DNA of 64,000 nt from Diplolepis rosae (lineage: Eukaryota > Arthropoda > Insecta > Hymenoptera > Diplolepididae), in assembly GCA_030998225.1 (NCBI GenBank), contig JAPYXD010000704.1:4960001-5024000 (forward strand), in the 5' to 3' direction. A model generated the notes under the pieces. The model did no database searches, was not told the origin of the DNA, and saw nothing but the letters and a program-made list of their open reading frames with translations. Shown here in pieces: positions 41,091-64,000 of this stretch (positions are counted from its first letter, which is position 1; each line of letters opens with the position of its first letter). The position numbers and the translations under genes are program-made.

Positions 41091-41893
41091 TGTCACGTCC
41101 CGCGACTCTACCGCCACAGGTAATAAGCAGATTAAGAAACCAATAAAGGGATCAAGACAGCATTACAGCGAGTGTGATTTTATCGACGCAAGTTATAGAC
41201 AAATCTACAGATCAATAGGATGATCAATACGAAATTACCATGTGTCGTTCTAATACCTACACATGATAACAAATCGACTAACCCAGAGAGAAAGTAAATG
41301 AAGCCCTACAATACCAACACACTACCGTCATAACATGCGACTTGTAAAAGCATGTGACTGGTAATAACATGCGACTCGTCATAGCATGTTACTCGTCATA
41401 CTTCACCTTTCAAAGTTCTATAAAAAGCGAAAGTTCCAAGAGAAGTCAGTCCAGTGCCATCGAATCTATACCGCGAGTGCAATCCAGTCAGTCCAGCTTC
41501 TCCAGATTTCTACCGCTACTCAACCCGAATTCTAACTCGGCGCTGAGTTCAACGACATTAGAAAGTGAAGGGGAATCGCCTTCCAAATTCTCTCGAAACT
41601 GGGACCTGAAGATTACAAGTTACACTCAACTGACCACATTCGCTTACTGGACTCAATTGATCATCAATCAATTCAAACTCAGGATAACTAAAAGGGTATT
41701 TTTAATTACGATTCTATATTTACATTTCCATGGTGCTTACCTGATAACATTTCAATTGGCAATAAATATATTTTATATACCTAACCCTTCTCAATCACTG
41801 ACTAATCCTCATCCCTTAGAGAGGATCCTTCTGATCCTGACATAAAACGAGGAGATCCATTAAAAGGAGAAATGTTACGTTTCTGACGTAACA
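41091..41893 (+). repeat. 5' LTR of the giant element
   Basis: It begins TGTCACGTCCCGCG and ends CTGACGTAACA, a TG...CA pair with inverted termini, and lies just upstream of a tRNA-Gly primer site. It contains a TATA box, a TCAGT initiator and an AATAAA at 41,761-41,766, giving U3, R and U5 in the right order. Its 3' edge is uncertain: 18 bases separate it from the primer site, so the LTR may extend to 41,911. The bases ACTAC occur on both sides (41,086-41,090 and 41,894-41,898), which on its own would suggest a solo LTR. The primer site argues against that. Confidence 0.65.
41419..41450 (+). promoter_or_regulatory. LTR core promoter: TATA box and TCAGT initiator
   Basis: TATAAAAAG at 41,419-41,427 is followed by the arthropod initiator TCAGT at 41,446-41,450, with about 29 bases from the TATA to the initiator A. 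This sets the likely start of R. Confidence 0.7.
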
Positions 41894-41911
41894 ACTACCC
41901 AATCTCCTTTT

Positions 41912-41929
41912 TGGTGCATCGGCCGGGAA
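41912..41929 (+). promoter_or_regulatory. primer-binding site for tRNA-Gly
   Basis: TGGTGCATCGGCCGGGAA is complementary over all 18 bases to the 3' end, with CCA, of insect tRNA-Gly(GCC) as I know it. It marks the start of the internal region of the giant element. Confidence 0.85.
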
Positions 41930-42029
41930 ACACTTAGTCAATGAATGGGATATCGAAATTTCATGATTAATAGGAATTAAACATTAATAAATTGCAATTA
42001 CAATTTATATGATTTTACACACATATTGG

Positions 42030-42370
42030 TTAAAATAAAATAAATTTGATAAAATCACGAAAGGACTTGACCTTGAGGCTAACTTGAGTGATTAAATAAT
42101 CATTTTATTTTATTTGAAATTTTATACACATATCTTGTTAAAATAAAATAATTTTATCAAATCACAAAGGGATCTGACCTTGAGGCTAACCTAAGTGATT
42201 AAATAATTATTTTATTTGCAAAACTGTTTTATTTCCTGATTTCTTGTTATTTTGTACAAACTGTGTTAAAATAAAATAAATTCTGTTGATTCACGCAGGG
42301 ATTTGACCTTGAGGCTAACCTAAGTGATCAAAAGACTTATTTTATTTGAAATTTTATTATCGGAATTTTT
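42030..42370 (+). repeat. three leader repeats of about 120 bp
   Basis: CTTGACCTTGAGGCTAAC or a close variant occurs at about 42,066, 42,175 and 42,303. Each is followed by TGATTAAATAAT-like sequence and ATTTTATTT, and preceded by TTAAAATAAAAT. Two 'TTGTGCTTGAGTCA' boxes (42,398 and 42,650) and one 'GAACGGTCACCAT' block lie further on and match the leader of relic 1. Confidence 0.8.
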
Positions 42371-42840
42371 GAAAGTGCAGAGATTACATAAGATTTTGTG
42401 CTTGAGTCATGCCTGTCTAATCTCGTACTTCTTTAATTCTAAATTGTTGACTATGTTTTAATTTGAGTTAAAACGAGAAAAAGCAGAACAAGAGACTATA
42501 AGTCCTTTTTAGATTCGTTGAACGGTCACCATTTGATGACGATCAATTGGGTAAGGCAAAATTCAAGTGCTCATACAGTATCGTTTGAAACTTTTATTTT
42601 AACTCTGTTAACTAACAGAATATTTTTAATTGCAAAAGATTGACCAAGATGTTGTGCTTGAGTCAGGCTTGTCCAATCTTGCATTAATTAAATTCTGTAT
42701 AATTTATAATTTTGTTTATGTCTGTGTAATAAAAAAAATATAACAAAAAATTTTTTTTTGTGAGTGTAACAATTATTTAAAACCCATTTATGACCTATAC
42801 CATCCGACGATTATATAAAAAAAAAAACATATCAAGTATC

Positions 42841-42850
42841 CCAGGTAAGA
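42841..42850 (+). promoter_or_regulatory. candidate major splice donor in the leader
   Basis: CAG|GTAAGA, intron start 42,845, is a near-perfect donor in the untranslated leader, 335 bases upstream of gag. It could supply the shared 5' exon for the spliced messages that the acceptors at 58,067, 62,403 and 63,081 imply. Use is inferred from sequence only. Confidence 0.5.
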
Positions 42851-43178
42851 CAAGGAACAAAATTATTTTCTATAAGAATAAATTTGAAACAAAAAATTCT
42901 AAATAAATATTTTTTCTGTAAGCACATGGAAATTGGTAGAATTAAGGCATATTATTTTTAAGAATTTTGATTGATGATTATAAATTTACCTGACTCGGAA
43001 CATTGAGACAATTCATATTTTCTAATAACAAATTATTAATCACATTTATTGATTACAAAAAAATTTTAAACAAAAGATATTTGAAAAAATTTTCTGTTGA
43101 TCCAAATTAATATTTATGTATTGCAATTTTAAAAGTGTCTCCATGTACGTATCAGTAAATTTTATTTTATAATAACCT

Positions 43179-45071
43179 ATGTCGGGACCCAACCCCAGTG
43201 AATTAGGGAAATCACAAATTCAAGAAAATCCTATTACGCGCAGTCAAGTTAAGAAAAATACTGAACTTGCAAAAATTGTGGCACAAAATCAAACTGGTCC
43301 CCTTAAACCAAAAAGAACAGTTACTGTAAAGGAAAAGGTAACTAAAGATAATTTTGAAAATATTTATAACAAGGACAAAACAAATATCAGTTTGCAATTA
43401 GATAATATTTCTTTAGAGAAAACCTTAACGTTTGAACAATTCGAAACTGCTGGAACAAGCAATTCATCTGACTCGAATAATTGGCGTAATTCAAATTCAA
43501 AAACTAATTCGAGTATTATTTGTGGATCAATTGATCAGGACGAAACATTAAAAAACGAAACTACTTATATTGACAACGAAGATATAAGTTTACTTAGTTC
43601 AACGATAATTCCAAAAAACACAGTCGAAGAAAGAACTAAAATAAATTTATCAGAAAACTCTCTTAAACGCCAAACAGTTTTAAGTAATAACGATAGCGAC
43701 GATAATAGTACCGACAACGAACAAATGGAACCAATTGTTCACAAAAATCCTGCAGAAAACGTTAATCCAATTAGAAACAACGAAATGGTCCTACCTAATA
43801 ATCAACAAGTATCCTTACGCGACGCGTTAGAAGTAGTACCCTTATTTGATGGAAGTAATATTCCATTATCACATTTCATTGAAGGATGTTATGAGACAAA
43901 GGCAATGCTGCCAACATCCGCAGCTCAAGAAAATCTAGGACGATTATTAAGAAGTAAATTATCAGGAGAAGCGAGAAAATGTATCTTTGGATCGACTTAT
44001 AATAATATGGAGGAACTAATTGAGAAACTTAAAAGAGTATACGCCCCAGCAAAAAGTGTGTATCAGTTACAAGGAGAATTAGGGAATACCTATATGTGGG
44101 AAAAAGAGAACGTACTTTCCTATGCAGCCAGAATTAAGGAGATTGCTGACAGAATCGAAGACGCTCATAGACTCAACAACAATGGACAAGTAGATAATAC
44201 CTTCAAACAGAACCTTCAAAAAGACGTTATTCAATGCTTTATTCGTGGTCTTCGTCCCGAATTAGAAATTCGAGTGAAAACAAAGGAAACATTTAAAGAA
44301 GTTTTCAATGACACAATCAACGTAGAAAGAGACTTGGCAGCATCATCCGCACTACGGAGAAATAAAAATTCAGATTATTTAAAAATGGATGATTCTATAA
44401 ATAATAGAAATAATAAAACAACTCGGTTCAATGTTGCCCGAGGTAACAACATAAATTGTATAATATGTAAAAAACCAGGTCATGTTGCTGAAAATTTTTA
44501 TATTTTAACCAAAGAACAATAATTAGTATCTATAAAACAAATTACTAATTTTTTTATGCAAAATCAACAGCCTATTAATAATCACCAACGACGAGAAAAT
44601 ATTTACAATAATTCTGCAAGAAATAATTACAGGAATAACCACTTTTTAGGAAAAAGAAATAAAAATTATGACAATAATAAATATAAGAATAACAATTTTT
44701 CAAGGAACAGGAACAACAATTACAATAACTTTTCAGGTAACAGAAATAATTATCCTAACAACAATAGATTCCATAATTACAATAATTTCTCTAGAAACAG
44801 AAATAATGATAATAGACAAGAAAATCTAGATCACAACACGTATGCAAATCACAGACAATTTTTTAATCAAAATAGACAACGTGAGATGCAAAATCAGCAA
44901 TTAAGTAGACCAAATCAAAACTATCCACAAAAATCAGAAGTTATATGCAACTATTGTAAAAAACCAGGACATATTATAACAAATTGTAATGTTAAATTAA
45001 ATAAACAACAATCGCAAAATTCGGAAAACTCAAATGCTCTCCCCAGCACGGATGCACTGAGGAAAGCGTAA
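43179..45071 (+). pseudogene. gag: gag of the giant element, one nonsense codon
   Basis: Capsid and nucleocapsid protein, about 630 codons from ATG 43,179. A single in-frame TAA at 44,520-44,522 splits an otherwise open frame. The capsid core at about residues 205-400 has 'QQVSLRDALEVVPLFDGS' and 'VYQLQGELGNTYMW', shared with relic 1. The first zinc knuckle (about 44,457-44,498) has lost its last Cys to Phe; the second (about 44,947-44,990, 'CNYCKKPGHIITNC') is intact. Between them is an Asn/Arg-rich stretch. Both gag copies end with an 'SNALP.TDA' motif. The pol frame is -1 relative to gag and is already open before the gag stop, suggesting a programmed shift. Confidence 0.9.
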
Positions 45072-45643
45072 GGCAAGAACCAGAAGCATCCACTTCTAAC
45101 GATCAACCGGCTATAAAGATAAGCGTTTCCAAACCAAGTATAATTCCATCGATAATGATATGCGCAGAAGGCCTTCAAAGCCCTGCTCGCATGATGATAG
45201 ATACCGGTGCTGGTCGAAATTTGATTAAACAAAATTCCGTAAATCCTAATTTGCCAATAGATGGAAAAAGAGTGTTAAAACTTACAGGAATAAATAATTT
45301 ACCACTTTTTACAATGGGAAAAGTACAAATAAACATTCTGGGATATCCAACAATATTGAATATGATTCCAAATGAAGTTCCAATCGATGAAGACGGAATT
45401 CTAGGTTCAGAATTTTCTCGAGAAAATAAAGTCAATATAAATGATGTATCAAAATGTCCAGAAATACAAAATAAACTGTATCCATTTGAATCGACACAGA
45501 TATTAACAATTCCAGCTAGAACAGTAACAACATTTTATGTTCCAATTGAAAATACTGAAAAAATCGAAGGGTTACGTACCTCGGCTAAATTTTGGCGAAG
45601 GAATTTATGCAGGAGACGCAATTGTAAAAAATTGCAATGGTAA
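45072..45643 (+). pseudogene. pro: protease region of pol
   Basis: Retropepsin part of Pol, with the catalytic 'MIDTGAGRNLI' at about 45,193-45,225 and a downstream 'DGILGSEF' box of the flap/C-terminal strand. It is open in the -1 frame from before the gag stop. A one-base indel near 45,570 throws the end of this frame out of register with the RT frame, which starts in sequence at about 45,537, so the natural Pro-RT fusion is broken in this copy. Confidence 0.85.
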
Positions 45644-47300
45644 AGCTTATATCAAATTTGCAAATACAAACGAAATTTCAGTAACGATATCAATACCGGT
45701 TATTACTTTGAAAGACTTTGAAGAAAGAGATTTTCAAAATGTAACAAGTCAATCAAGCAATTTAAAAAGCTTATGTGATGACGATTTATCTAATCAAATT
45801 CTGAATATCTTCTTAAAAACCGACAATTTTTTCAACAATCCATGCAGATTTTTTAACATAACAGCTGAAGAAAGAATAGAATGCATCAAAAAACTTCTTC
45901 GTTTGGATCATTTCAATCAAGACGAATACGAACATGTAGAAAGACTAATTATTAACAGTACAGACAGATTTCAAATCCCAGGAGAACCACTTGAAGCTAC
46001 TAACGTTTTGCAACATTCGATTCCAACTACAGATGATTCTCCAATTTTTTCAAGACAATATAGATTTCCCCCTGTTTATAAAGAAGAAATTACAAAACAA
46101 GTTGACGAATTATTAAAATATAAAGTAATAAAACCTTCACAATCACCGTATAACACTCCAGTTTGGATTGTTCCTAAAAAACCAGACTCTAAAGGGAAAA
46201 TAAAATGTCGAATAGTTCTAGACTTCAGAAAATTTAATGAAAAAACAATCGGAGATTCTTACCCACTACCTAACATAAATGATATACTCGATTCACTCGG
46301 ATCTGCCAGATATTTTTCAGTATTCGATTTAGCTACTGGTTTTCACCATATAAAAATGGACCCTAAAGACTCTCATAAAACTGCATTTTCTACACCTCAT
46401 GGCCATTATGAATTTGATAGAATGCCCTTTGGTTTAAAAACCGCCCCTGCAACATTTCAAAGGTTAATGGATATTACTTTAACTGGATTAATAGGGACAG
46501 AACTCTTTGTATATCTTGACGACATAGTCATATTTGCTGATACACTAGAAGAACATGAGAAAAAATTTAATAATTTAATACAACGTCTTCGAAAAGCAAA
46601 CCTTCATTTACAACCAGACAAATGTGAATTTCTACGACCTGAGATAGGATATTTAGGTCATATAATTGATAAAAATGGAGTTCGACCGGACCCCAAAAAA
46701 ATAATAGCCGTAAAAGAATTTCCAGTTCCAAAAACACAAAAGAATGTTAAACAATTTTTAGGATTAGCAGGATATTATCGTAGATTTATCGAAGGATTTT
46801 CAAAAATTGCCAATCCTCTTAATCAACTTCTCAAAAAGGATACGCCTTTTATATGGACCGATAAACAGCAAACATTTTTTGACATTTTAAAATCAAGATT
46901 ATGTGAAGAACCACTTTTACAATGACCCGATTTTTCGCAACCCTTTGTTCTCACAACAGATGCCTCAGGATACGCAATAGGAGGTATATTATCACAAGGC
47001 AAAATAGGCAAAGATAAGCCAATAGCATATGCTTCACGTAGTTTAAGTGACACTGAGAAAAAATATGAACATATGAAAAAGAAGCACTTGCAATAATATT
47101 TTGTGTCACTCATTTCCGTCCTTATTTATATGAAAGAAAATTTACCCTAGTAACTGATCATAAACCACTAGTTTGGTTTCAAAATTCTAAGGACCCTTGC
47201 TCACGAGTTTCGCGCTGGAGGTTAACACTCGCTGAATATGATTTTGATATAGTATACAAGGCAGGAAAAATGAATGTCAATGCAGACGCTCTCTCAAGAA
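45537..47300 (+). pseudogene. pol: reverse transcriptase and RNase H of pol
   Basis: The RT domain runs from about 46,080: 'KCRIVLDFRKFNE', 'SVFDLATGFHHIKMDP', 'MPFGLKTAPATFQRLM', the catalytic 'YLDDIVIFAD' at about 46,510-46,540, then 'GYLGHIID' and 'VKQFLGLAGYYRRFI'. A TGA at 46,923-46,925 interrupts the frame just before RNase H ('LTTDASGYAIGGILS'). A frameshift near 47,080 moves the RNase H tail ('VTDHKPLVWF', 'NADALSR' at 47,280-47,300) into the frame of the following insert. The catalytic residues are present, so the decay is fairly recent. Confidence 0.9.
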
Positions 47301-48685
47301 ACCCTATTATTAATGAAGAGAGATCAAGAAATTTACACGAAGATGATGACGATACCTTTATGACATCTCAAGAAAAAACGAATCTTGAGAATAACTTTAT
47401 GAAAAATAACGAAGAAAATAATATCAAAAAAGGAAATAATTCCAAAAGAGAATATTTCAATTCGATATTTACCCAAGATGATATAAATGACTTTAGTGAA
47501 TCATCACAAGATCCAATATTAAATATCAATCCTAATTTTTTAGAAACTTTTAATGTTTCTCCCAATGAAGAATTATTTAATAACATTTGTAACAATTTTA
47601 TGAAATATACAAGTTCATTGAAACTTTTAGCATCAAAGCTTCTGTTTATGACCATTATACTCTTAAGTCCAATACTTGGAAAAAATTATGAAAATTCGCC
47701 ATGGAAAACCATGACTACTAGGGGTAAAAAGAAAAAACAAGAACAAATGAAAAATTCAAATGAGCATAAAAATCTAAAAAATTTAAATCAAATCGAAATC
47801 AAAGAAAAATTAGACGAAAATTTTTCTTCTAAACCTCTTGTGAAAAAACCTCGAGGTAGGCCAAGAAAAACTCTACTTACAAATTTAAAAATTATTCCCT
47901 CTCAAACAAAAAGAAAGAGAGGTAGACCAAGAAAACAAATATATGAAAATGAATTACCAGAAATAATTATGCAAAAAGGAAGCCGAACAAAAGTAAAATC
48001 AGATTCCGACTCTGATCCTGATTCTGATCCTGAATATTTGGACTATTTGAAAGAAATCCAAGCAAAAAATAAAAGAAGGAAAAAGGGCAACAAGCCTAAA
48101 CAATTTATTATACCTCAAGAGGGAAAAAGCGAAAATTATTTTTCTACTTCTGAAGATGAAGTAATTGGTATGGAAACTGAAGATGAAGAGAGCTCTGAAA
48201 GCTCTTGTATTGAAGAAATTTTTGAAAATGAAAATATCGAAGACACTTTTAATGAACGAAATTCTGAAATAAACAAAAATCGACAAATAAAACCAGGGAA
48301 AATCTCGAAAATGATAATAATTCAGAATTCGAAGAAAACCGTCCACCCCCAAAGCCCCCTCCATCCAACCCAAAATCTACCAGGCAAATTTTAATGAATA
48401 AAAATATCGTTGAATGTCGCGATCAATTAAGGATGTGAAAAGATAATTATGTATATTTTGTTACAACAAATGGAAATCCTCTAGATAATGGATCAAAATA
48501 TTCTAGAAAAATGTGGAACCTTACCAAAATTTAAAAACTTACAGAAGTGAACAGCGAAGGAAATTAAAAAAGGAAACTATTATCATTTTGCTCTTCCGAT
48601 TGAGGGAGAAATTCAAGACAATTTATCTGAAACCTTGAATAATATAAAATAGTCAATTCATTCATTACACGAATTATCTCAAAAA
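47270..48685 (+). pseudogene. pol insert between RNase H and integrase, with two AT-hooks
   Basis: About 375 codons are open from the end of RNase H to 48,394, followed by about 290 bases in which coding continues but is riddled with stops. The insert has a hydrophobic stretch near 47,620-47,690 ('LLFMTIILLSPILG'), two AT-hook motifs 'PRGRPRK' (about 47,845-47,870) and 'KRGRPRK' (about 47,912-47,935), and acidic Ser/Glu-rich tracts. Similar acidic spacers exist in gypsy relatives of the mdg1/412 type. AT-hooks bind the minor groove of AT-rich DNA, so a role in tethering the integration complex to chromatin is possible. Confidence 0.65.
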
Positions 48686-50015
48686 TTGAATTTACGATCA
48701 ATTAGTATTTCAAAGACTTCAAAAATCAACCATATAGCTTGGAAAGAAATAAAATTAATATTTAATTTAGTTTTTGCAAATTCACTTACAAAAATAATAA
48801 TTTGTTTAGGAGGCCATAAAGGCTTCACAAAGACCTATAATCGAATACGCCAAAAATTCTTTAGCGAAAATATTAAAGTCGATATTCAAAAGTATATTCA
48901 AGGCTGTTTACAATGCCAAATAAAAAAATTAGTTCGAGTTACAACTAAAAATCCTATGGTTATTACTCATACACCCACTACTGCCTTCGAAAAAATATCA
49001 ATGGATATTCTTGGTTCACTACCAGAAACAAAATCTGGAAATTTGTATATTCTTACTATACAAGATAATTTTACAAAATACTCTCTAGCAATACCTCTTC
49101 CTAATCATCAAGCTGGTACAATAGCAGACGCATTCGTGAAAAAATTTATTTGCATATTTGGATCGCCAAAAGGAGTACTAACGGATCAAGGCAGAGATTT
49201 TTTAAGCAATTTATTAAAAAGGTTAGCAAAACGCTTTAGAATCAAACAATTTCGTACCACAGCTTTTCACCCTCAATCCAATGGATCACTTGAACGATCA
49301 CATCATGTCCTAAGTGAATATCTCAAACAATTTGTAGCAAAAAATTCAGAATGGGACGATTGGCTAGAATTAGCAATGTTTTCATATAACACAAGTGTAC
49401 ACGAAGCCACAAAATGTACGCCTTACGAATTAGTTTTTGGAAAATTAGCCCGTGAACCCTCTAGTGAACCTCTATCACAAAATGAAAAATTGCAAATCTA
49501 TGATGATTATTTGATCAACTTTGTCACACAACTGCATGAAATGCGAACACAAGCAAGAGAAAACCTCATAAAGGCAAAAGAAAAATCAAAAATGTACCAC
49601 GATAGAAAAATAAATCCCTTGGAAATAAAAATTGGGGATAATGTATTTTTATTAAAAGGAGGAAAAATTAAAAAGCTGGATAATCAATACACAGGACCTC
49701 ACGAAGTTTTAGATGTACTAGGAAAAGGAAATGTAAAAATCAACATAAAGGGAAAACCGACAGTAGTTCACGTCTAGTGATTCATTCGAGCGACACGATC
49801 CGAGAAACGACCGAAATATTTTTTGTTATCGTCTTGACAATCGAACTGTCATCTCGGTTCATCTCATTGAAACGAACTTCTCGTCAAATCGATCGATACG
49901 ACCGAGCATCGGAAGCTCGTTTTCAAAAATAAAAATATGTTTATAGCTAAAAATAATGTTCAAAATGTAGAAAAGCCTTATTTTAAGTATAGTAACAACT
50001 AAATTTTTTAATTAA

Positions 50016-50690
50016 GGTAGTTGTCATCCAAGAAAATTAGACCTCAGGCAAAAATAGATAATTTTGCTTTCAAGAATAGCAATATTATTATTGAAGGGCT
50101 ATTTATATTTTGAAAGAGAAAAGATCATTTTACATTAAAAAAATTTAAAACACAGAAAAATAATTTTATTAATAAATTTTATTTTTGACCCAACTTTTTT
50201 TCTTCTCGCTTATTACCAAATTTTAAAAAATTATGCGATTCTAATAATTCATGAATAATTTTATCAGAGAAAAGATTCCCAAAAAATTTACCGTTTCTGA
50301 GTTTTAAAAATAAATTCTTTAATGGCTGAAAACATTAAAAAAACATTTTCCAAAGCGAAATTTTTATAAACAAATTGCTGAATTTGATAATAATTTACTC
50401 ATTTTCGAAAATTGGAAATGGTTAAGTTGTAGGGAATCTTTTTCTTGAAAAATTGATTTGTAATTTATTAAAATCGCATTATTATTTAAAATTTGGTAAG
50501 AAGTGATAAGAAAAAAAGTCGGGGCAAAAATAAAATTTATTAATAAAATTATTTTTCTATATTTCAAATTTTTTTCATGGAAATTAATCTTTTCTCTTCC
50601 AAAATAGCCCTTCAATAATAATATTGCTAGTCTTGAAAGCAAAATTGTCTATTTTTGCCTGAGGTCTAATTTTATTGGATGACAACTACC
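50016..50690. mobile_element. foldback MITE, copy B
   Basis: A 675-bp palindrome with ends GGTAGTTGTCATCC and its inverse, flanked on both sides by TTAA (50,012-50,015 and 50,691-50,694). It is near-identical in its terminal 100 bp to copy A at 40,576. It is nested in the hAT transposon, so the MITE family was active after the hAT inserted. Confidence 0.9.
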
Positions 50691-54173: not shown

Positions 54174-54455
54174 ATGGATTATACTTATCGCAAAAATATT
54201 GACGCCCTATTTGATGCATTTGTAAATCTAGTCGGTATGATAGCTCTTTGGCCTTATCTAATTCAAAACGGAATCTACAATCACGACGATTGTAACATAC
54301 TTGAGTGGAGCAAAGATTTCACTAACCCAATTAAAATCCGAGAAATCTTTACGACAATTAAAACTCGCGGTAGAGAAGCCTATAACAATTTAATCCTCAG
54401 TCTACGATCGTCAGGACACGAGTCGTTAGCCGAAATTCTAAATTCAATGAAATAA
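54174..54455 (+). CDS. CARD-like protein encoded by the retroelement
   Basis: 93 codons, starting at ATG about 90 bases after the pol stop. The length and helical pattern fit a stand-alone death-fold domain of the CARD class: 'NIDALFDAFVNLVGMIALWP', an 'NGIYNHDD' turn and, most tellingly, 'TRGREAYNNLILSLRSSGHE' followed by 'SLAEIL'. This matches the RG..AY..L...LR...........L pattern of the last CARD helices in insect initiator caspases and their adaptor. Known CARDs act by binding other CARDs in apoptosis and immunity. A CARD-only viral protein could act as a decoy, but that is inference. The start is chosen as the only ATG before the conserved part. Confidence 0.65.
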   Translation: MDYTYRKNIDALFDAFVNLVGMIALWPYLIQNGIYNHDDCNILEWSKDFTNPIKIREIFTTIKTRGREAYNNLILSLRSSGHESLAEILNSMK

Positions 54456-54567: not shown

Positions 54568-56606
54568 ATGGGATTACGAGGCTTCCTTTTGGTACTGCTG
54601 TTTCTAAGATTGGTCTACATATATGAAAACAACTTACGTCATCATTGGATTTGATTGCGGCTCAAACAATGCGAATATAACAACATTATCCCTATTGGAA
54701 GTGGGCGAATGCGATTTACCTCAACGACAAGTAAATGTCGAAAAAACTTACATACAACTTTTGCAAATTACCGGATTTTCAAATACTAAGGTTATACAAT
54801 GCAAAATAGAAATTCACTGTGCTATAACTTATTTTGGCATGCATTTCCATATTTCTGTGGTCGCAAACGGTCACAGCGAATATATACAAGAAGTCTCACG
54901 AGATCAATGTAAACAAATGCATACAATGGGAAACTTCCTAGTAACACCTTCTATCCAAATATCAAAATTAAAAATAAACGAAACATCATATCATACAGTC
55001 ACATTGGCGGGTTCATTAACAACTAACGGTGAATGTACAGGAACGCAATTTTCAGACCCTTATGGTACATGGAACAGTGTAGTAGTTCAAGCAATATTTA
55101 AAATCACCTTACAAGAACATTATGCAACAGTTCATTTAAATACCGATAAAATTCAATTGCTATCGGGAGTGGTATGCACACTTTCAAAAACATATTGTAC
55201 AGATATGGAAGACGGGCAAACATTTTGGGATACCTTACCAAATGATATATGCAATTTCAAAAAATATGAGGTTATTTACGAAGGACCAGCAAACAAAACG
55301 CATGATAACACTACAGAAAATTCTCAAACCCTATACTCACTAACTACGGATGAAATAACTTTCGTTTTAACAGAGAAAACAAGAAAACCAGTTTGTAACT
55401 ACGTTCTCATTCACACCGAACACCCAAAATTATTAATTTTTGAAACCAGACCTGGAAACTCATTTTTAGAGAATAAACGTCTAGAAGTTCAAAATATGGA
55501 TATTTTTTCCTACGTCAATTCTAAATTTGTATATGTGGAAAGACACATACGCATAGAAATTAACAGACTTTACCACGACGTTCTTACTCAACGATGCCGT
55601 CTAGAACAACAAGTTTTCAGGAATACATTAACCTTAGCTACTCATGCACCAGACGAATTTGCATATCATCTAATGAAAAGCCCAGGTTACATGTCAGTGA
55701 CAGCAGGAGAAGTAGTACACATCATACAATGTATACCTGTTGAAGTAAAATATAGGAAAACTGAAGAATGCTATCTTCAATTACAAGTAACTAGAGGAAA
55801 CCAGTCTTACTTTCTGTCTCCACGAACTCATATCTTAACAAAATCCGGCACACAATACAAATTGCAACTCTCTCATTCCTTCAATGTATCTTTTCGGTGA
55901 AACATGGTACAAATTGATACCTAATCCTGTAGAATCAATAGCTCCAACAATAATAAAACCACTTACAAAAGTAACTTGGAAATACCAAAATCCTTCGTCC
56001 TTAGCAACAAGTGGTATTTACTTTCAATCAGATCTCGACAGATTACGTGACCACATTATGTTCCCTGCAGAAAAACCCATGATATTAAATTCATTAGCAA
56101 GAGAAATATCAGGTAGACCTACAGTAAATCAAGGAATATCCCTAACGAACTTATTTAATGAAGAGATAATCGATAAAATCGCTGAATCCGCGTGGGGTCG
56201 CTTCTGGACTCTGTTCATAAATTTTGGTACAACTAGCGCAGGATTAATAGGCCTTATTATTATAATTAGAGGAATTAAAATAATAGCAGACACTATTATA
56301 CACGGATACGCATTACATAATTTATTCGGCTGGTCTTTTCACTTATTAGGCGCATTCTGGGATTCTGTCACTAATTTACTTTTACACCTAGGAACGAGAC
56401 AACTACCGAGAAGGCCTACTAAAACAGATAAGAAAGGTCCAGACGCATCGGCGCCACGCTCAGACACAGAGGAACGCGACATTCTAGTAAAACCAGTACA
56501 ACCTATAAATACAGGTAATAAACAGAACGATACACAAACCACTCTTTATCCTCTTTCTCAACTAGCTGAAGCATCTAATAACAGGAATTATTCCATAGAC
56601 ATATAA
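54568..56606 (+). pseudogene. chuvirus-type glycoprotein gene, frameshifted
   Basis: Envelope glycoprotein related to the G proteins of chuviruses (Jingchuvirales), which are also known as captured genes in insect LTR elements. The largest open part is 54,623-55,900, with 'IGFDCGSNNANITTLSLL', many Cys, and 'YVNSKFVYVERHI', 'EFAYHLM..PGYM' and 'GEVVHIIQCIPVEV' blocks. The C-terminal part, 55,884-56,606, is in another frame and holds the stem, a membrane segment ('AGLIGLIIIIRGIKII') and a cytoplasmic tail. A signal-peptide-like start at ATG 54,568 ('FLLVLLFLRLV') is in a third frame. So there are two breaks, near 54,600-54,650 and 55,884-55,900. Assignment is from remembered motif order, not a search. 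Confidence 0.7.
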
Positions 56607-56616
56607 CTTATATATC

Positions 56617-57400
56617 ATGCCACACAATAACTACATAACGTTACTAGATCAAATAATAAAACAAAAGGGTGATCATTCCCCACATTATAAAACACTTATT
56701 AAGCAGAATTGCAAAAATCAAAATCAATTTAATGTAAAATTGAGGTATAAAAATTACATAATAATCAGTAATGCAGAAGATGAAGAAATAGCCAAACAAA
56801 CTGCAGCAAAATATTTATTATTCGAATTAAACAATAATAATAATAATTCGAATTTCATAAACTCATTAAATGAAAAAACAGACGAAAGATTACAAAATTG
56901 GTGTGCTCAACAAAATCTTTCTCAACCACAATATACAGCTGTAAAAGTTAAAAATTCACAAAATATCAACATATGGTTAGCAATTTGCTCAGTCGAAAGA
57001 ATAAAACAAACAGGAATTCTTAATACCAGTAAAGAAGCAAAAGAATCTCGCTGCACTCAAAGTAATACATATGCTAATAAGTACCGAACACCTGAATAAA
57101 AATTATGAAGAGTCTATATCCAACTGCCTACAAAATACTCACATTTCGTTTCAAGAACCTTCAACGAGTTTTTCAAGTTCTCATAGAAACCCCCTAATAA
57201 TAAAAAATAAATTACAAACCACTGGATCCAAAAAATTAACGAAAATTCCTATTCACAAGCACAACAACCTCTCTTGCATGTCTTCAAATATAATCAAAAA
57301 GCAAAAAATTTTACTTGATACATCTCAAAAATCAAACAAATCTTTCAAAAAATGCATCAAATGCGGACACAGATCGTTAAACCCTTATTTCAAATTTTAA
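56617..57400 (+). pseudogene. tandem dsRNA-binding-domain protein, frameshifted
   Basis: The first frame (56,617-57,099) begins with a dsRBD at about residues 8-70, ending in 'EEIAKQTAAKYLLFEL', the conserved C-terminal helix. A second, drifted dsRBD at about 92-148 has 'LQNWCAQQNLSQPQYTAVKV' and 'KEAKESRC'. The frame then shifts near 57,075-57,099 into 57,071-57,400, whose end ('FKKCIKCGHRS') looks like a zinc knuckle missing its last Cys. Two dsRBDs in series resemble RNAi cofactors and viral RNAi suppressors; a suppressor role is inference. It starts 10 bases after the glycoprotein stop. Confidence 0.7.
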
Positions 57401-57999: not shown

Positions 58000-58054
58000 A
58001 ATAAATTATTGGACATTAAACAGAAACCATTTTTAATCTTAAAATTATTTATTT

Positions 58055-58067
58055 ATTTTTTTTCCAG
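58055..58067 (+). promoter_or_regulatory. splice acceptor before the F-like envelope
   Basis: A long pyrimidine tract ends in TTTTCCAG|ACC at 58,067, only 16 bases before the envelope ATG. Envelopes of errantiviruses and retroviruses are made from spliced RNA, so this fits. It also shows that the 25 codons before ATG 58,084 are intron, not protein. Confidence 0.65.
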
Positions 58068-58083
58068 ACCATCGAGAAGCACA

Positions 58084-59868
58084 ATGAATCCTCAACTTTT
58101 AGCTACGATCCTTTTCTTAAATTCCCTACTAAAATCGACTACATCCATTTACATCCATACAAAATTTTCAAACTCTCCAGGTATATTCTTCGAACCTATA
58201 ACAAACTTTCGAGTTTTCCATAAAGAATACCATTTTGTATCCTATTTAGATACATACCAAATATTTAATTTACATCATCAGGTAACAAAATCATACAACC
58301 AACTTCTCGATTATTGTATAAATACAGGAAAAACAAATAATTGCAACCCGGAAGATAAAAAGATAAAGTTTGAACTTAGAAATGAAAAAATTAGCATATT
58401 TTTGGACTACATATCTTCCGTAATGCAAAAACAAATCGACAACTCATTATCAAGAAAAATCCAAAAAACTATCGTACAAAAAGAAACCAAACAAAAACCT
58501 ATATACCAACATGAAAATAATATATCAATAATACAAAATCCAGCCTTGAAAAAAATTGAAAGTATTTCCAAAATTTTTACAGAAATAGTACCATTCATAG
58601 ACTGGTTCAACAGTAAAGATAAACTGGACATTTCAATCTATCAACGTGACGCATCAAACTGGTTAAACTCATTACTCGAAAGACTAGACACTTATCTTTT
58701 CCTATTAGACCACCTAGCCAACGCATTATCCCATGCTATTAACGGTCAATGGGATCCCTTTCTCTTCCCAGACTCTCTGCTGCATCCCCTGTTTGAAACT
58801 AAACATAAAAATATTCTACTTCCATTTTCTACTCATATTTCTGAAATTCTTTCATTCACAAAAATCCAATATTTTAATTATGAAAACACATTAGTTTTCA
58901 GTCTGAGTATTCCAACTCCCTCAAAAGAAGAATTTACCTTATTCAAACAACATTCCATTCCTACATTTATAAAACTTGCAGATAATGAAACAGCAGCCGT
59001 GTATATTCAAACACAAACTGCTTATGTGGCACTATCTAAAAACAATCAAAGCTACTTCTTGTCACCTAATGACCTTACGGAATCTTGTTTCCAAACCAAT
59101 ATGGGTCCAATATGCCAAAATACAAATCCCTTTTTCAGCATCTCAACAACCCCTACTTGCGAAACGGAAATTTTTACCAAATCAAGCCCTTACAAACGCA
59201 AAATTCACCTCAGCATTAATAACTACTCACCATGGACAGCTTTAACTAAGCACTACGGTTGGATTTATGCAACTCCAACACCTCAAACCATCAATTTGAA
59301 CTGCCCAAAAAATTTGCAGATCACAATCGACATTCAAAATATAGGAATCCTTCAAACAAAGCTAGAATGCGAAATCAAATCCATAAACCTGCCCCAACCA
59401 CAAAGCAATAATTTTATATTTCTAGATAAATCAATAACCTCAGTGAATACAAACGTTTCTATTTTCTCAGCTGCTACATTGTTAAGAATTCACCTTAAAG
59501 GTATTAAAAACAAAATAAAGACCCTTTTAGAAATTGGAGAAAAAGAAGACATTCCACTATCATTCTTAAAATACGAAATTTTTATCTCGAAACAGTTAGA
59601 AACGGAGAAAAACCCCATTTTTTATATCAACAATATAAATTTTACAGACTATATTCTCATCGTTATTATTATAATGATACTCCTAATGCCAGTTTTATTA
59701 CTGAAAATGTCCCTCAGACTAAGGAAATTAGGGATAAAACTAAAACAAAATATAACCAAATTGAAACAGAATGAAAGCGAAAGTTCAAAAAAAGCAAAAA
59801 CACAACTAAGTAACGCTACGGTACCATTATTAGATAACCTTAATTTCAATTTTAATAACCAACTATAA
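58084..59868 (+). CDS. env: F-like envelope fusion protein (baculovirus F / errantivirus Env type)
   Basis: 594 codons, fully open. A signal peptide lies at the start ('LLATILFLNSLLK'). The central region has a long helical part with 'LLDHLANALSHAINGQWDPF'. The conserved C-terminal half has 'PSKEEFTLFKQHSIPTF', 'YVALSKNNQSYFLSPNDL' and regularly spaced Cys. A membrane anchor ('YILIVIIIMILLMPVLLL') sits at about residues 520-542, with a basic tail of about 50 residues. This order and Cys pattern fit the LD130/F family of class I fusion proteins found in baculoviruses and in env-bearing insect gypsy elements. I see no clear furin site (R-x-x-R). It is the best-preserved large gene of the element. 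Confidence 0.75.
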   Translation: MNPQLLATILFLNSLLKSTTSIYIHTKFSNSPGIFFEPITNFRVFHKEYHFVSYLDTYQIFNLHHQVTKSYNQLLDYCINTGKTNNCNPEDKKIKFELRNEKISIFLDYISSVMQKQIDNSLSRKIQKTIVQKETKQKPIYQHENNISIIQNPALKKIESISKIFTEIVPFIDWFNSKDKLDISIYQRDASNWLNSLLERLDTYLFLLDHLANALSHAINGQWDPFLFPDSLLHPLFETKHKNILLPFSTHISEILSFTKIQYFNYENTLVFSLSIPTPSKEEFTLFKQHSIPTFIKLADNETAAVYIQTQTAYVALSKNNQSYFLSPNDLTESCFQTNMGPICQNTNPFFSISTTPTCETEIFTKSSPYKRKIHLSINNYSPWTALTKHYGWIYATPTPQTINLNCPKNLQITIDIQNIGILQTKLECEIKSINLPQPQSNNFIFLDKSITSVNTNVSIFSAATLLRIHLKGIKNKIKTLLEIGEKEDIPLSFLKYEIFISKQLETEKNPIFYINNINFTDYILIVIIIMILLMPVLLLKMSLRLRKLGIKLKQNITKLKQNESESSKKAKTQLSNATVPLLDNLNFNFNNQL

Positions 59869-60614: not shown

Positions 60615-60809
60615 ATCCTATTGCTTCAAAAAAACTAGATACACAAAAAGGTACTATAGGCCCTTAAATACCTTCTTCTTTTCACTTTCTTCATCTCTCC
60701 CTCCAATTTTCCAGAGAAAGTTGCAAGTCTACTCATCCTCCAAGCAACTAAAATACTAAAATGAGAAAAAGCAATAAAAATTATAAAATACTATACCTAC
60801 GATAATCTG

Positions 60810-61551
60810 TCACTTTATTCTAAGTACCTTAACGATTTCATCATCAACAAATCGATATCTCTTCTCTTGATAGACGAACGGACCACCAACAACCTTTGAA
60901 TTCAGTAACATTTTACATACATGTTCCAATCGCTTATTCCCGCCAGAAAATAGCCAGTCCCAAGGAACTTTCACGGACTGACCATTAATGTCGATAACCC
61001 GATCACATTCATTTAACATTATATACGAATGACCACCAGTCCATTTTTTCCTTCTATCACAAATCTATAAAATAATACAAAACATAATTATCCAAATAAA
61101 GATGAATATACAATTAAATTGCTTATACTTACTTCAATTATCTGGTCACCTTTTATTTGTCATTTTCTAAAACTAGATACAAAAGGAATTTCCAAATCTT
61201 TAGAATTCACAAGCCGAGATAGTATATTTTCCCTTCTTAACTTCCATTTGTAATCTCTAGAACTTAAGCATTCAAGGGGCACAGAGACCTTAACAACAGA
61301 ACCATCATCATTTGTAAAGCTTAAATAACTCCTTCTTATAACGAGACGTTTTTCGTTATCAAGCCAGCGAATCCTCTTTGGATCAAGCTGAAAATAATAT
61401 AACATAAAGTGATTAACCGATATAAACACAGGAAACATTATAAGTATCAATTCTTAAAAATTTGTTACTACATACCAGTCGTAAATATTTGCGATTTTTT
61501 AAATAACAGAATTTACCACAAATAAAAAAAGCGCCATCTACTCCGTGACGT
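60810..61551 (-). CDS. antisense multi-exon gene with duplicated module
   Basis: Minus-strand exons are 61,476 to about 61,548 (start not fixed), 61,133-61,387 and 60,810-61,064, joined by introns with CTG|GTATGT...TTTTCAG and GAA|GTAAGT...TTTATAG. Both complete exons are 255 bases and all junctions are phase 0, which supports the model. The two 85-codon exons are diverged copies of one module: each has a '(G)SVVKV' or 'SVKV' strand, then 'LVNSK' or 'LLNSK', then 'PFV'. An in-frame TGA at 61,160-61,162 lies nine codons before the end of the middle exon. It could be a mutation or the true end of a shorter protein. Family unknown. Confidence 0.5.
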
Positions 61552-61598
61552 CAATACTGCTGCTTAATTTTTTTAGATAAATATAACTTTTGCCCACT

Positions 61599-61832
61599 TC
61601 AAAACGACCACCAATATGATAAACATTTAATTACAGCCCCGTAGCAAAAGACATCAAAACTGTCCTTATCTTCCTTATAAACCCACGGTCTCTCCCATTT
61701 TTCACCGTCAATGTGGGCTTGCGGTTTCAGCTCCTGCCCAAAGCTATTAAACTCTTCAAAACGGTCACAATATTCTTGCAATTCAAGGAAAAGATCGTCA
61801 AAACTTGATATTGGTTTTAAATCTTTCATCAC
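61599..61832 (-). CDS. small antisense ORF, 77 codons
   Basis: Acidic, aromatic-rich frame starting with adjacent ATGs near 61,830 ('FDDLFLELQEYCDRFEEFN', then 'DGEKWERPWVYKEDKDSF'). It could be the first exon of the gene at 60,810-61,551, but I find no donor/acceptor pair that keeps the frame, so it is listed separately. Family unknown. Confidence 0.4.
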   Translation of the reverse strand: MMKDLKPISSFDDLFLELQEYCDRFEEFNSFGQELKPQAHIDGEKWERPWVYKEDKDSFDVFCYGAVIKCLSYWWSF

Positions 61833-62391
61833 AAAAAAGGGAAAATAACTTTTGCCGTCAAAAAATCAAACTGACGCCTTCAATCCTTCTGCACTCAATA
61901 TAAACCCTTACCCTCCCATAATTCCTTACACCTTTTCTATTTTGAAATACAAATATTGGAAACTCCTCACTTTCCAATAGAATAAAATCAATTTTTAGAC
62001 TTTTCAAAAATAGACACGAAATTTTTTTTTATTTTGCATTTTAATTACCTTACATATCTAAAAGATTACCACTAGCATGGTTACATTTCTAAATAAAGTG
62101 TCAATTCCTAATCACCACGAATCACAAGTTTTTTTGTACTACCTTTTTATTACTCTTTGCTTTTAGAAAAAACTTTTACTTTCCACGCATAAATAATACT
62201 TTTATTACTACTACTATACTTCAGTTTACTTGCATCAATCGCTTCTTCACAACAAATGCTATCTTATCTTTACGTAACCCATTACCATACTTACCTTTCA
62301 TCAAATCATTAAATGTCTCAACTTCAAACAAAACAGAACGAAATTACTCACATTACAAACTTGATAAATTAAATCACTGTAAATTTTCACA
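61833..62391. other. intergenic region between divergent genes
   Basis: AT-rich, no coding sequence. It separates the antisense genes from the plus-strand Cys-rich gene, and so may hold the promoter for the antisense transcripts. Confidence 0.4.
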
Positions 62392-62822
62392 ATTTCAATA
62401 CAGGAATGATCCCAACGCGAAAGGAACAGGAATATAAGAATCCCAAGTACGTGGATGCAGTGCGGCCACAAGACTTTCCGTTGACTTATAATTATTTATT
62501 ACTATGTTCATGTCTTGCAATGCACCCTTCTATTTTATTCATATATTACAAAAAAGCCACTCAAAAAAGATTCTGTTCATTTTGTTACCTAAGTATTCCA
62601 GAATCTGAAAGATTAAATTATGAATGTAAATTAGACTGGCACTCTATTGCACACGTACCACACATCTATTTAAATTGTTACGGTTGTCGAGAAGAATTAA
62701 TATATCCACGATGTAAAGCATCCGATTGTCTAGAATGTATAGAGCAATACTTAATAAGTAAAACGTCAATAAGGCAAGAAAATGAAATAGAAGTAGAGAC
62801 GGAAATGTACGAAAACATTTAA
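62392..62822 (+). CDS. Cys-rich putative zinc-binding protein
   Basis: The coding part is 62,406-62,822, 138 codons. A splice acceptor TTTCAATACAG ends at 62,403, two bases before the ATG. A hydrophobic stretch lies near residues 28-48. Then come paired Cys/His that could bind zinc: 'FCSFCYLSIPESER', 'CKLDWHSIAHVPH', 'NCYGCREEL' and 'CKASDCLECIEQYL'. The pattern (two C-x2-C pairs, His, then C-x4-C-x2-C) resembles small RING- or treble-clef-like folds but fits none that I know. The immediate upstream acceptor suggests it is made from a spliced message of the element. Confidence 0.5.
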
Positions 62823-63068
62823 CTATATTTGTTAAATAATTGGCATCCTATACAACCTATCAAAAGAAATTTTTTTTTTTCTTCTCCTCGAAAAACAATT
62901 TAAAAGAAATTTTTTTTTTAAGACTATTGTTGGAACTCACATCACACCTTTCTCTAATGTAAAAATTGTTTTTCCTAAAACATAATTCAAATTATATTCA
63001 ATAAACATAACATAGCAATAATAAAGAAAAAAAAACAAAATTCAATCAAATATATATTAATTTTACTC
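62823..63068. other. short non-coding gap
   Basis: AT-rich, with AAAAGAAATTTTTTTTT repeated at about 62,860 and 62,902. Confidence 0.4.
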
Positions 63069-63549
63069 TTATTTTTTACAGAAAATTAAAAGAAAAATGG
63101 CCTTCCAACAAAGAAATTTCCTTAAAGGAAGTGCTGTTCAGATACTTAACGAAATAAGTATTGAATATAATTTTCGCAAACCCGAATATGAGATAGAATG
63201 TTTAGGCGAATATGCAGAGCTACCCCCATTTACGGCAAAATGTAGCATAATAAAAGACAAGCGCGAATACGTCCATATAGGTAAACCCGCGAGTACAAAA
63301 AAAGAAGCTAAACAAATTGCCGCCAGAAAAATTCTAGAAATAATTTCTAATTATTATATTTTTTCCGAAGAAAAAATTGACGAAACTTTTGTGAACGAAG
63401 AAAAAATTAATGTAATCTACGAATCAAATTTACCTAATGGTAAAGTCAAATTATATAAGTGGACACATTCCTGCGAAAAATGCTATCAACACGGACACAT
63501 AGCAAAAAATTGTTATGGGCCAAAGCGAAATAAAAATTATAATCCATGA
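63069..63549 (+). CDS. dsRBD plus zinc-knuckle protein
   Basis: The coding part is 63,097-63,549, 150 codons. A strong acceptor ATTTTTTACAG ends at 63,081. A textbook dsRBD fills residues 8-88: 'GSAVQILNEISIEY', 'PPFTAKCSI' and the RNA-contacting 'STKKEAKQIAARKILEII'. Residues around 128-142 form a zinc knuckle 'CEKCYQHGHIAKNC' (C-x2-C-x4-H-x4-C), followed by a basic tail. All key residues are present and the frame is open. It is paralogous to 57,511-57,999, which ties the two ends of the accessory region together. Binding of dsRNA is expected; RNAi suppression or RNA packaging are inferences. Confidence 0.8.
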
Positions 63550-64000
63550 ATAATTTCATTACATTTAGCCCAGATTTTCCTCGTTTATGCTACCCTTTTT
63601 ACTACGGACATAATTATCATATTATTATCTTCTTTCCTTCTAGTTCTTATGCACATATGTAATCAACGATCTTAATATTATTTTAATCTCTATTAATATT
63701 ATATATGTCAATTTCTTTTATGTATAATCAATAATTTATAAGGCTTTTTAGATTTTATTTTTACTAGTGTATACATTTAACGATCGTAATTCTTGGAAAT
63801 TACTCCTTAATATTTTATATCTAATCGATGAAATTTTACAATTTTTAATCTTCTTTTCATCAACAATCATCGTGTTTTAAGTTTAAATAATTATTATCGA
63901 TCAAAAAATTGCCAAATTACCTAATTACCACTATAACATATGTAATCAATATTGTAATATTTCCAGAATTGTATCCTCTGTTATTACTACGCATTTATGT
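63550..64000. other. no gene to the end of the window
   Basis: AT-rich sequence with several ATGTAATCAA / TATGTATAATCAAT-like short repeats. No LTR start resembling that at 41,091 is seen. Confidence 0.4.

What the first reader, a model, noticed from the sequence alone, without database searches (positions are those of the whole stretch)
41091..64000. Giant retrovirus-like element with an accessory gene region of about 10 kb
Seen: LTR, tRNA-Gly primer site, gag, pro, RT, RNase H and integrase are followed, in the same element, by a CARD-like ORF, two kinds of envelope glycoprotein, three dsRBD proteins, a Cys-rich protein and antisense genes. The link across the hAT insertion is proven by its 8-bp duplication and the resumed integrase frame. 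Known: env-bearing gypsy elements normally have one env and few or no extra genes. Inference: this is a complex insect endogenous retrovirus lineage with host-manipulating accessory genes.
Basis: partly seen in the sequence, partly recalled or inferred. Interest (0 to 1): 0.95.

Follow-up and report, generated by a model that had tools for sequence, protein, structure and literature searches.

The report
Giant complex insect-type endogenous retrovirus
A 19-20 kb retrovirus-like element, present in many copies in one animal genome, carries two unrelated entry proteins plus a cell-death-type domain protein, several double-stranded-RNA-binding proteins and antisense genes with introns, which makes it look far more elaborate than the simple insect retroviruses known so far.

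Summary
Apart from a 4.26-kb hAT insert, this is a 19-20 kb LTR provirus: gag-pol, then CARD protein, chuvirus-type glycoprotein, dsRBD proteins, baculovirus-F-type envelope, two antisense intron-bearing genes, Cys-rich protein and dsRBD+knuckle protein. Six of eight LTR pairs found for this family carry the module; two are gag-pol only. Two diverged high-copy families share the core order; LTRs were shown for one of them. dN/dS between families is 0.09-0.21 for the four genes where it could be measured well: GP, ds2, ds3, Cys. It is a complex retrovirus lineage that I did not find described in ten paper searches, and it gives the Gypsy-type capture of a chuvirus glycoprotein for which a 2023 survey saw 'no clear evidence'. 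Roles in RNAi suppression and apoptosis blockade are inferred.

The parts
40572..41090 (.). MITE with ~104-bp terminal inverted repeats, interrupted near its right end by the element; target duplication ACTAC at 41086-41090
   Evidence: inverted repeat I3; sequence; right flank after the 3' LTR begins ACTACCTTAA
41091..41893 (+). 5' LTR, TGTCACG...GACGTAACA; TATA 41419, Inr TCAGT 41446, AATAAA 41761; partner LTR at contig 5024206-5025066, just outside the window
   Evidence: LTR pair differs at 4 of 803 aligned sites plus one 58-bp gap
41912..41928 (+). primer binding site fitting the 3' end of tRNA-Gly(GCC), 18 nt after the LTR
   Evidence: tRNA identity recalled
42012..42346 (+). 5' leader repeats: three 99-bp copies at 107- and 129-bp spacing, each with TGACCTTGA
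43176..45071 (+). gag and nucleocapsid (zinc knuckle) in adjoining ORFs
45005..45643 (+). protease
   Evidence: RVP E=0.08, weak; position and conservation in copies
45528..46925 (+). reverse transcriptase
   Evidence: RVT_1 E=1.4e-34
47069..48394 (+). RNase H plus a linker with two AT-hook motifs
   Evidence: RT_RNaseH E=2.5e-17; RGRP x2
48653..49774 (+). integrase, with the hAT inserted near its 3' end
   Evidence: rve E=1.7e-12, H2C2 E=5.7e-12
49775..54038 (-). hAT transposon inserted in the element; target duplication TTCACGTC 49767-49774 / 54039-54046, TIR TAGTGATTCA
   Evidence: Dimer_Tnp_hAT E=3e-22
54174..54455 (+). CARD-only protein, 93 aa
   Evidence: PF00619 E=2.3e-6; nearest PDB sequences Dronc E=0.005 and CED-3 E=0.014
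54608..56606 (+). chuvirus-type (Monjiviricetes) fusion glycoprotein, in two frames in this copy
   Evidence: PF24664 E=6.6e-160 and 3.7e-72, searched apart; open frames of 690-816 aa at many other loci
56617..57400 (+). ds1, protein with two dsRBDs; two overlapping frames here, one 265-266-aa ORF in two other copies
   Evidence: dsrm E=4.4e-5; second dsRBD E=1e-4 in copy C386
57511..57999 (+). ds2, dsRBD plus CCHC-like tail
   Evidence: dsrm E=0.002 here, 0.0007 in family C, 0.004 in family B, all under Pfam's cut-off; dN/dS 0.15-0.18 between families
58000..59868 (+). baculovirus-F-type envelope protein, 622-aa ORF (ATG at 58084)
   Evidence: PF12259 E=8.7e-24; 95% identical open frame in C386
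60031..60614 (-). antisense gene AS1, two predicted exons 60309-60614 and 60031-60240, acidic protein
   Evidence: GT-AG intron with pyrimidine tract intact in 2 of 4 other copies; exons found in A copies and A' loci
60810..61829 (-). antisense gene AS2, three predicted exons ~61476-61829, 61133-61387, 60810-61064, with an internally repeated domain; exon 1 apparently frame-broken here
   Evidence: splice signals; exons 2 and 3 ~33% alike; 26 genomic matches, those beside the family A copies checked are antisense
62406..62822 (+). Cys-rich 138-aa protein, unknown fold
   Evidence: 150 genomic matches scored; dN/dS 0.18-0.21 to three A' loci
63097..63549 (+). ds3, canonical dsRBD (KKEAKQIAA) plus CCHC zinc-knuckle-like tail
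   Evidence: dsrm E=1.1e-7; zf-CCHC only E=0.33; dN/dS 0.16-0.18 to three A' loci

Best explanation
This is a proviral copy of a large, complex, Ty3/Gypsy-type endogenous retrovirus; four other copies of its family measure 19.0-20.5 kb LTR to LTR. SHOWN: an LTR with TATA/Inr/polyA motifs, a tRNA-Gly type primer site, gag-pro-RT-RH-IN and polypurine tract, then a conserved 9-10 kb module: CARD protein, chuvirus-type glycoprotein, dsRBD proteins, F-type envelope, two antisense genes with predicted introns, Cys-rich protein and dsRBD-knuckle protein. Three families in the genome share the core order CARD-GP-ds2-F-Cys-ds3 and show purifying selection between them, so the module works for the element. 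INFERRED: the LTR drives a genomic RNA and spliced sense mRNAs. The two fusogens of different descent give particles two entry routes. The dsRBD proteins hide element dsRNA from Dicer-2 siRNA silencing, or act on RNA in the particle. The CARD-only protein blocks the initiator-caspase (Dronc/Dark) apoptosome by occupying its CARD interface. The antisense genes have their own promoter; their introns survive retrotransposition because the packaged sense RNA cannot be spliced there. Gag-pol-only copies are derived forms.
For: Second LTR, polypurine tract and 4-5-bp duplications at 7 of 7 LTR pairs whose ends were read. The same gene order in 4 further copies read piecewise; LTR divergence 0.46-2.68% over 7 pairs. 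CARD to GP 440-476 bp and GP to ds2 2.86-2.90 kb in the loci tabulated from three families, except deleted copy C81 (coordinates). Family B is LTR-bounded: C284, 19.0 kb, with CARD, ds2 and ds3 inside. dN/dS between families: GP 0.09-0.12, ds2 0.15-0.18; A to A': ds3 0.16-0.18, Cys 0.18-0.21. Splice signals of AS2 intact in 3 of 4 other copies for each intron (one not covered each time), of AS1 in 2 of 4. Domain calls.
Against: No transcript, particle or protein data. The CARD model is weak (pLDDT 64.5, best Foldseek E=0.8), the CARD's similarity to Dronc is marginal (E=0.005), and family B's CARD falls under Pfam's cut-off (E=0.001). Within family A, dN/dS for AS1 exon 1 and AS2 exons 1-2 is near or above 1 on few changes, and Cys is 0.76. 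AS1's donor is altered in C76 and its acceptor missing from the aligned piece of C386. Two of 8 LTR pairs lack the module, so it is dispensable for amplification. F was not tested for selection between families; A-to-B dS of CARD and ds3 is saturated. The RT was not placed in a tree. A 19-20 kb genomic RNA exceeds known retroviruses (recalled).
Confidence: 0.82

Rival explanations
1. The right-hand genes belong to other inserted elements or to endogenised RNA/DNA viruses that happened to land inside one gag-pol retrotransposon, and the composite then amplified.
For: The parts have different descent (chuvirus GP, baculovirus F, CARD, dsRBD). Gag-pol-only copies with the same LTR family exist.
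Against: The core order is shared with families B and C, whose proteins are only 33-57% identical outside the GP. Purifying selection acts between families. The repeat search of 38000-64000 showed no further LTR-like direct repeats inside the module.
Confidence: 0.06
2. It is a large DNA virus or virus-like transposon (polinton, nudivirus relative) that has picked up a retroelement gag-pol.
For: Large gene set, F-type envelope, antisense genes.
Against: Bounded by LTRs with PBS, polypurine tract and 4-5-bp duplications. No DNA polymerase, helicase or DNA-virus capsid among the Pfam hits of the 20 ORF pieces scanned.
Confidence: 0.02
3. It is the described complex lineage, but the accessory proteins serve structural or RNA-packaging roles (the dsRBD + knuckle proteins as accessory nucleocapsids for a very long RNA; the CARD as an assembly scaffold), not host manipulation.
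For: ds3, ds2 and ds1 end in CCHC-like tails, as nucleocapsid does (by eye). The genomic RNA is unusually long. CARDs can form filaments (recalled).
Against: Three separate dsRBD genes and a CARD nearest to initiator caspases in sequence fit anti-silencing and anti-apoptosis better. Gag-pol-only copies amplified without them, though possibly with help from complete copies.
Confidence: 0.3

Closest known systems
Errantiviruses / insect endogenous retroviruses (gypsy, ZAM, TED type; Metaviridae)
   Same: Gypsy-type pol with PR-RT-RH-IN order, LTRs, 4-5-bp target duplications, an F-type env.
   Different: Known ones have one env and ~6-9 kb (recalled). This one is 19-20 kb with two unrelated envs and at least seven more genes. 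A word search of a 2025 insect-ERV paper (PMC12992720, passages) found 0 occurrences of 'accessory', 'sORF', 'additional ORF' and 'two envelope'.
Anakin (BEL/Pao retroelements with a chuvirus glycoprotein, mosquitoes; PMC7642597, passages)
   Same: An LTR retroelement that carries a chuvirus-derived glycoprotein gene beside its pol.
   Different: Anakin is BEL/Pao plus that glycoprotein. Here pol is Gypsy-type and the GP is one of two envs among many accessory genes. PMC10084718 (passages) states 'no clear evidence' of such capture by Gypsy or Copia elements.
MDG1-group retrotransposons with sORF2 (PMC11952523, abstract and section list)
   Same: Insect LTR elements with small accessory ORFs that aid cell-to-cell transfer.
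   Different: There a short transmembrane fusogen replaces Env; no dsRBD, CARD or two-env module is mentioned in the abstract and section list that I saw.
Complex vertebrate retroviruses (HTLV with antisense HBZ, lentiviruses, spumaviruses) - recalled
   Same: Accessory genes after env, an antisense spliced gene, host-directed functions.
   Different: Different pol type, and no recognisable shared accessory protein. The dsRBD/CARD/second-env set has no counterpart that I recall.

Membership tests
Ty3/Gypsy LTR retroelement (Metaviridae) | Two LTRs with TG...CA ends, short target duplication, PBS and polypurine tract | tested here: met
   7 of 7 LTR pairs with both ends read have 4-5-bp duplications
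Ty3/Gypsy LTR retroelement (Metaviridae) | Pol order PR-RT-RNaseH-IN with Gypsy-type domains | tested here: met
   RVT_1, RT_RNaseH (PF17917), Integrase_H2C2, rve in that order; protease weak (E=0.08)
Ty3/Gypsy LTR retroelement (Metaviridae) | RT groups within Metaviridae in a tree | not tested
Errantivirus | F-type env after pol | tested here: met
   Baculo_F E=8.7e-24
Errantivirus | RT in the errantivirus clade | not tested
   no tree
Errantivirus | Env as the only gene after pol (simple genome; recalled) | tested here: not met
   CARD, chuvirus-type GP, dsRBD genes, AS1, AS2, Cys, ds3
Anakin (BEL/Pao + chuvirus GP) | Chuvirus-type glycoprotein inside the LTRs | tested here: met
   PF24664
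Anakin (BEL/Pao + chuvirus GP) | BEL/Pao-type pol | tested here: not met
   Gypsy-type RNase H and H2C2 hits, no Peptidase_A17 hit (that A17 marks Pao is recalled)
Chuviridae / Jingchuvirales virus | RNA polymerase and nucleoprotein genes beside the glycoprotein | tested here: not met
   none among the Pfam hits of the 20 ORF pieces scanned
Complex retrovirus (functional class) | Several conserved accessory genes beyond gag-pro-pol-env | tested here: met
Complex retrovirus (functional class) | Accessory genes expressed by splicing, antisense ones included | not testable with these tools
   splice signals only; no RNA data

The most novel reading that the evidence does not exclude
An unrecognised group of giant complex retroviruses arose within the Gypsy lineage of arthropods, independently of the vertebrate complex retroviruses. 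They combine two fusogens of unrelated origin, a battery of dsRNA-binding proteins against host RNA silencing, a CARD-only inhibitor of initiator caspases and spliced antisense genes, and exchange envelope genes between families by recombination. Such elements may be the source of the puzzling excess of chuvirus glycoproteins in insect, especially ant, genomes.
Probability: 0.55. Interest if true: 0.95.

Novelty: new variant of a known kind. Interest (0 to 1): 0.9.

Why it matters
Insect endogenous retroviruses are treated as simple gag-pol-env elements held down by piRNA and siRNA silencing (recalled). A retrovirus of this type with dsRBD proteins and a CARD protein of its own would show that the arms race has two sides, and it gives single, testable genes. 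It would also bear on a standing question. [quoted passage not shown] Another saw Gypsy fragments nearby but no clear capture by Gypsy elements (PMC10084718, passages). Here the capture is explicit, LTR-bounded and under selection. The antisense intron-bearing genes would be a natural case of introns kept through retrotransposition by orientation.

Tried and rejected
Rejected: composite of unrelated insertions (same module in diverged families); DNA virus origin (LTR structure); short copies as plain deletions of the module. C94 and C292 share a post-integrase spacer of their own without long ORFs (471 and 1104 bp; 89% and 98% alike over the two stretches that align), so they look like a gag-pol-only subfamily. 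I also considered and gave up the view that the antisense genes are confined to family A: AS2-like exons lie in one family B copy (see full report).

Led nowhere: four viral-contig scans, with GP, F, RT and Cys (no relatives); Cys structure (pLDDT 40); CARD fold search (best E 0.8); Rfam on 41000-64000 (0 hits); PDB sequence search with ds3, GP and F (nothing useful). Protein searches with ds3, Cys and CARD (8, 6 and 6 hits) gave only unnamed 'ena' contigs, so spread in other species is unknown. Host not identified. RT tree not made. Genome searches with AS1 and integrase did not complete.


Full report
WHAT WAS CHECKED. The window is contig C376:4960001-5024000 of an unnamed 757.7-Mb assembly of 428 contigs. 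The 3' partner lies at C376:5024206-5025066, same strand, 206 bp beyond the window. Its left neighbour is the polypurine tract AATTAAGGGGGGAGG. Its right neighbour is ACTACCTTAA, the predicted ACTAC duplication followed by the MITE end. The two LTRs differ at 4 of 803 aligned sites plus one 58-bp gap. The LTR-to-LTR span is 23,976 bp, including the hAT.

THE hAT INSERT. It runs 49775-54038 with TIR TAGTGATTCA and the 8-bp duplication TTCACGTC. The left and right flanks, searched separately, abut and share those 8 bp in 4 of 4 other copies tested.

COPIES OF THIS FAMILY (A). Among the 60 LTR matches I count eight same-strand pairs, 10-46 kb apart, that suit one element each. I set aside C292:218675/263017, 44 kb apart, because their flanks are a 3' and a 5' end. 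Seven pairs had both ends read, and all seven have matching 4-5-bp target duplications: ACTAC, ACTAT, ATAT, ATAC, AATG, GTAT, GGAT. LTR divergence in these seven is 0.46-2.68% (the earlier figures came from LTRs cut ~50 bp short). Searching the window's ORFs piecewise in stretches of at most 10 kb, copies on C85, C386, C81 and C76 show the order gag-NC-PR-RT-RH-IN-CARD-GP-ds1-ds2-F-AS1(-)-AS2(-)-Cys-ds3-LTR, most pieces at 79-100% amino-acid identity and a few at 61-71%. All four have damage: for example part of gag is missing in C386, the end of F in C85, and parts of CARD/GP and F in C81. The C229 pair, 46 kb, contains CARD, ds2, F, AS2, Cys and ds3 by coordinates; its GP is not among the matches listed, and about 30 kb lies between its CARD and ds2, which I did not read. 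The remaining two pairs (C94, 10.4 kb; C292, 9.95 kb) are gag-pol only, with a shared spacer of their own after integrase. So 6 of 8 pairs carry the module and 2 of 8 do not. Open frames for most single genes exist somewhere in the genome.

OTHER FAMILIES. Genome searches with single proteins score only the best candidates. ds3: 150 matches (1989 candidates), 20 at 64% identity or more, 130 at 49-56%. CARD: 150 (1099), 24 at 77% or more, 126 at 53-57%. F: 75 (71 of 2400 candidates scored), 32 at 64% or more, 43 at 35-36%. Cys: 150 (1083), 34 at 63% or more, 116 at 42-49%. GP: 98 (2000), 10 at 90% or more, 88 at 80-82%. ds2: 150 (1434), 25 at 65% or more, 125 at 52-56%. Some loci give two pieces. 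Combining coordinates separates at least two further high-copy families. Family C: GP-ds2-F-Cys-ds3 at C73 and C203, CARD-GP-ds2-Cys at C359. Family B: CARD-GP-ds2-F-ds3 at C386:6232590-6240029, and CARD-Cys-ds3 at C325. CARD to GP is 440-476 bp and GP to ds2 2.86-2.90 kb in the loci tabulated, except deleted copy C81. Family B's F was found in the stretch after ds2 (33% identity, E 2.5e-61; Baculo_F by Pfam). Family B's LTR has the same tract and ends. Of four family B LTR pairs seen, three enclose module genes: C284 10478113-10497158, 19.0 kb, holds CARD, ds2 and ds3; C427, 21.3 kb, holds ds3; C234, 16.4 kb, holds CARD; for the fourth, C385 (21.3 kb), no gene match was listed (40 of 2059 candidates scored). 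For family C the LTRs were not located.

ARE THE ACCESSORY GENES REAL GENES? The module has 8 ORFs of at least 140 aa (longest 622); 200 first-order simulations give a mean of 0.07, at most 1, longest 180. dN/dS of the window's genes against intermediate A' loci: ds3 0.16-0.18 and Cys 0.18-0.21 (three loci each), AS1 exons 0.29-0.51 (two loci); the 'ds2' rows for A' in that call are cross-matches to ds3 and should be ignored. Between A and B/C: GP 0.09-0.12, ds2 0.15-0.18 with dS near saturation; CARD dN 0.33 with saturated dS; ds3 dN 0.37 with saturated dS. Within family A, pooled over four copies: gag 0.29, IN 0.36, CARD 0.38, GP 0.61 and 0.29 (two pieces), F 0.46, ds3 0.40, ds1 0.60, ds2 0.62, Cys 0.76, AS2 exons 0.33-1.11, AS1 exon 1 1.95 and exon 2 0.20, many of these on few changes. 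Values for ds1b and the RNase H linker in frame-broken copies are inflated by mis-framed matches. So GP, ds2, ds3 and Cys are clearly constrained over the long term, and F and CARD probably. The antisense genes are conserved, but their constraint is less certain.

MOSAIC EVOLUTION. Between B and C, dS is 0.07 for the GP segment, 0.21 for CARD and 0.72 for ds2. Each family is represented by one locus per gene, and these are not all the same copy: B's GP and CARD are from C376 and its ds2 from C386; C's GP and ds2 are from C73 and its CARD from C31. Such unequal distances point to recombination that moved the GP between families.

ANTISENSE GENES. AS1 (two exons) and AS2 (three exons) lie between F and Cys on the opposite strand. 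AS1's intron has GT-AG ends and a pyrimidine tract, the same in C85 and C81; the donor is altered in C76 and the acceptor is missing from the aligned piece of C386. AS2's introns have GT-AG ends in every piece that aligned; the first acceptor was not covered in C85 and the second intron not recovered for C81. AS2 exon 2 has 26 matches in the genome at E up to 0.001 (85 of 85 candidates scored); beside the family A copies that I checked they are antisense to the element, and many of the others are decayed. Typical family B and C copies have only ~340-420 bp between F and Cys, too little for these genes (by coordinates). But the longer family B copy on C284 (CARD to ds3 8.5 kb instead of 7.0) has two AS2-like stretches, about 50% identical, on the antisense strand and in the right order upstream of ds3 (E 1e-6 and 8e-5 in that 1.5-kb piece; 0 such hits in 30 shuffles). 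A genome-wide threshold would miss it. The antisense gene is thus probably older than family A and absent from most B and C copies. Orientation explains why intron-bearing genes can persist in an element that moves through its sense RNA (inference).

PROTEINS AND MECHANISM. CARD: Pfam E=2.3e-6; a profile of six sequences finds Dronc (E 0.005) and CED-3 (E 0.014) in the PDB; the model is all-helical but of low confidence, and no fold match is significant. A CARD-only protein close to initiator caspases most simply acts as a decoy in the Dark/Dronc apoptosome (inference, about 0.5). ds1 (two dsRBDs), ds2 and ds3 carry dsRBDs (ds2 under Pfam's cut-off), and ds3 has the KKxAK-type dsRNA-contact motif (motif meaning recalled). 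In an animal with siRNA defence, sequestering dsRNA is the likeliest role (inference, about 0.5), with RNA packaging as rival. GP and F belong to unrelated viral fusion-protein families; two entry routes or two target tissues is the natural reading (inference). Of the six accessory proteins compared between families, GP is the most conserved and F the least. Cys is unknown.

LITERATURE. Ten searches of the open library (three of them returned nothing) listed, by titles and abstract starts, no paper describing a Gypsy-type element with this gene set; most subscription papers are not held. PMC10084718 (passages) reports Gypsy fragments near Jingchuvirales glycoproteins in Hymenoptera and other orders but 'no clear evidence' of capture by Gypsy or Copia. 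PMC7642597 (passages) describes the BEL/Pao capture, Anakin. [quoted passage not shown] The present element offers a concrete explanation for such data, to be tested.

VERDICT. Real, well bounded, repeatedly present and under selection. The lineage claim is near certain; the host-manipulation claim is a reasoned inference. The host and the exact RT placement remain open.

Noticed in passing
window 1255-1971 (-): The left end of the window holds part of a gag 49% identical to this element's gag, i.e. a related family on the opposite strand.
   Followed up: partly
window 42012-42346: Three leader repeats each carry TGACCTTGA (reverse TCAAGGTCA, the FTZ-F1/SF-1 type site; identity recalled). The whole window has 7 such sites, 3 of them here. 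Possible hormone-responsive control.
   Followed up: partly
window 47069-48394: The RNase H-integrase linker carries two AT-hook motifs (RGRP), which I recall as unusual in pol; perhaps DNA tethering.
   Followed up: no
window 41894-41912: The primer binding site starts 18 nt after the LTR (about 16 nt in other copies), further than the usual few nt (recalled).
   Followed up: partly
G000 C94:3763803-3774187 and C292:209580-219534: Gag-pol-only copies with family A LTRs and their own post-integrase spacer.
   Followed up: partly
L062:194-499 (C284, family B): AS2-like exon remnants on the antisense strand in a longer family B copy.
   Followed up: partly
L064 (C73:1033680-1035000) and L065 (C376:170430-171750): GP nearly the same in families B and C (dS 0.07) although ds2 has dS 0.72: sign of envelope exchange by recombination.
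   Followed up: partly
window 40572-41090 and 50012-50694: Two related MITE-like palindromic elements, one outside the LTR element and one inside the hAT.
   Followed up: no
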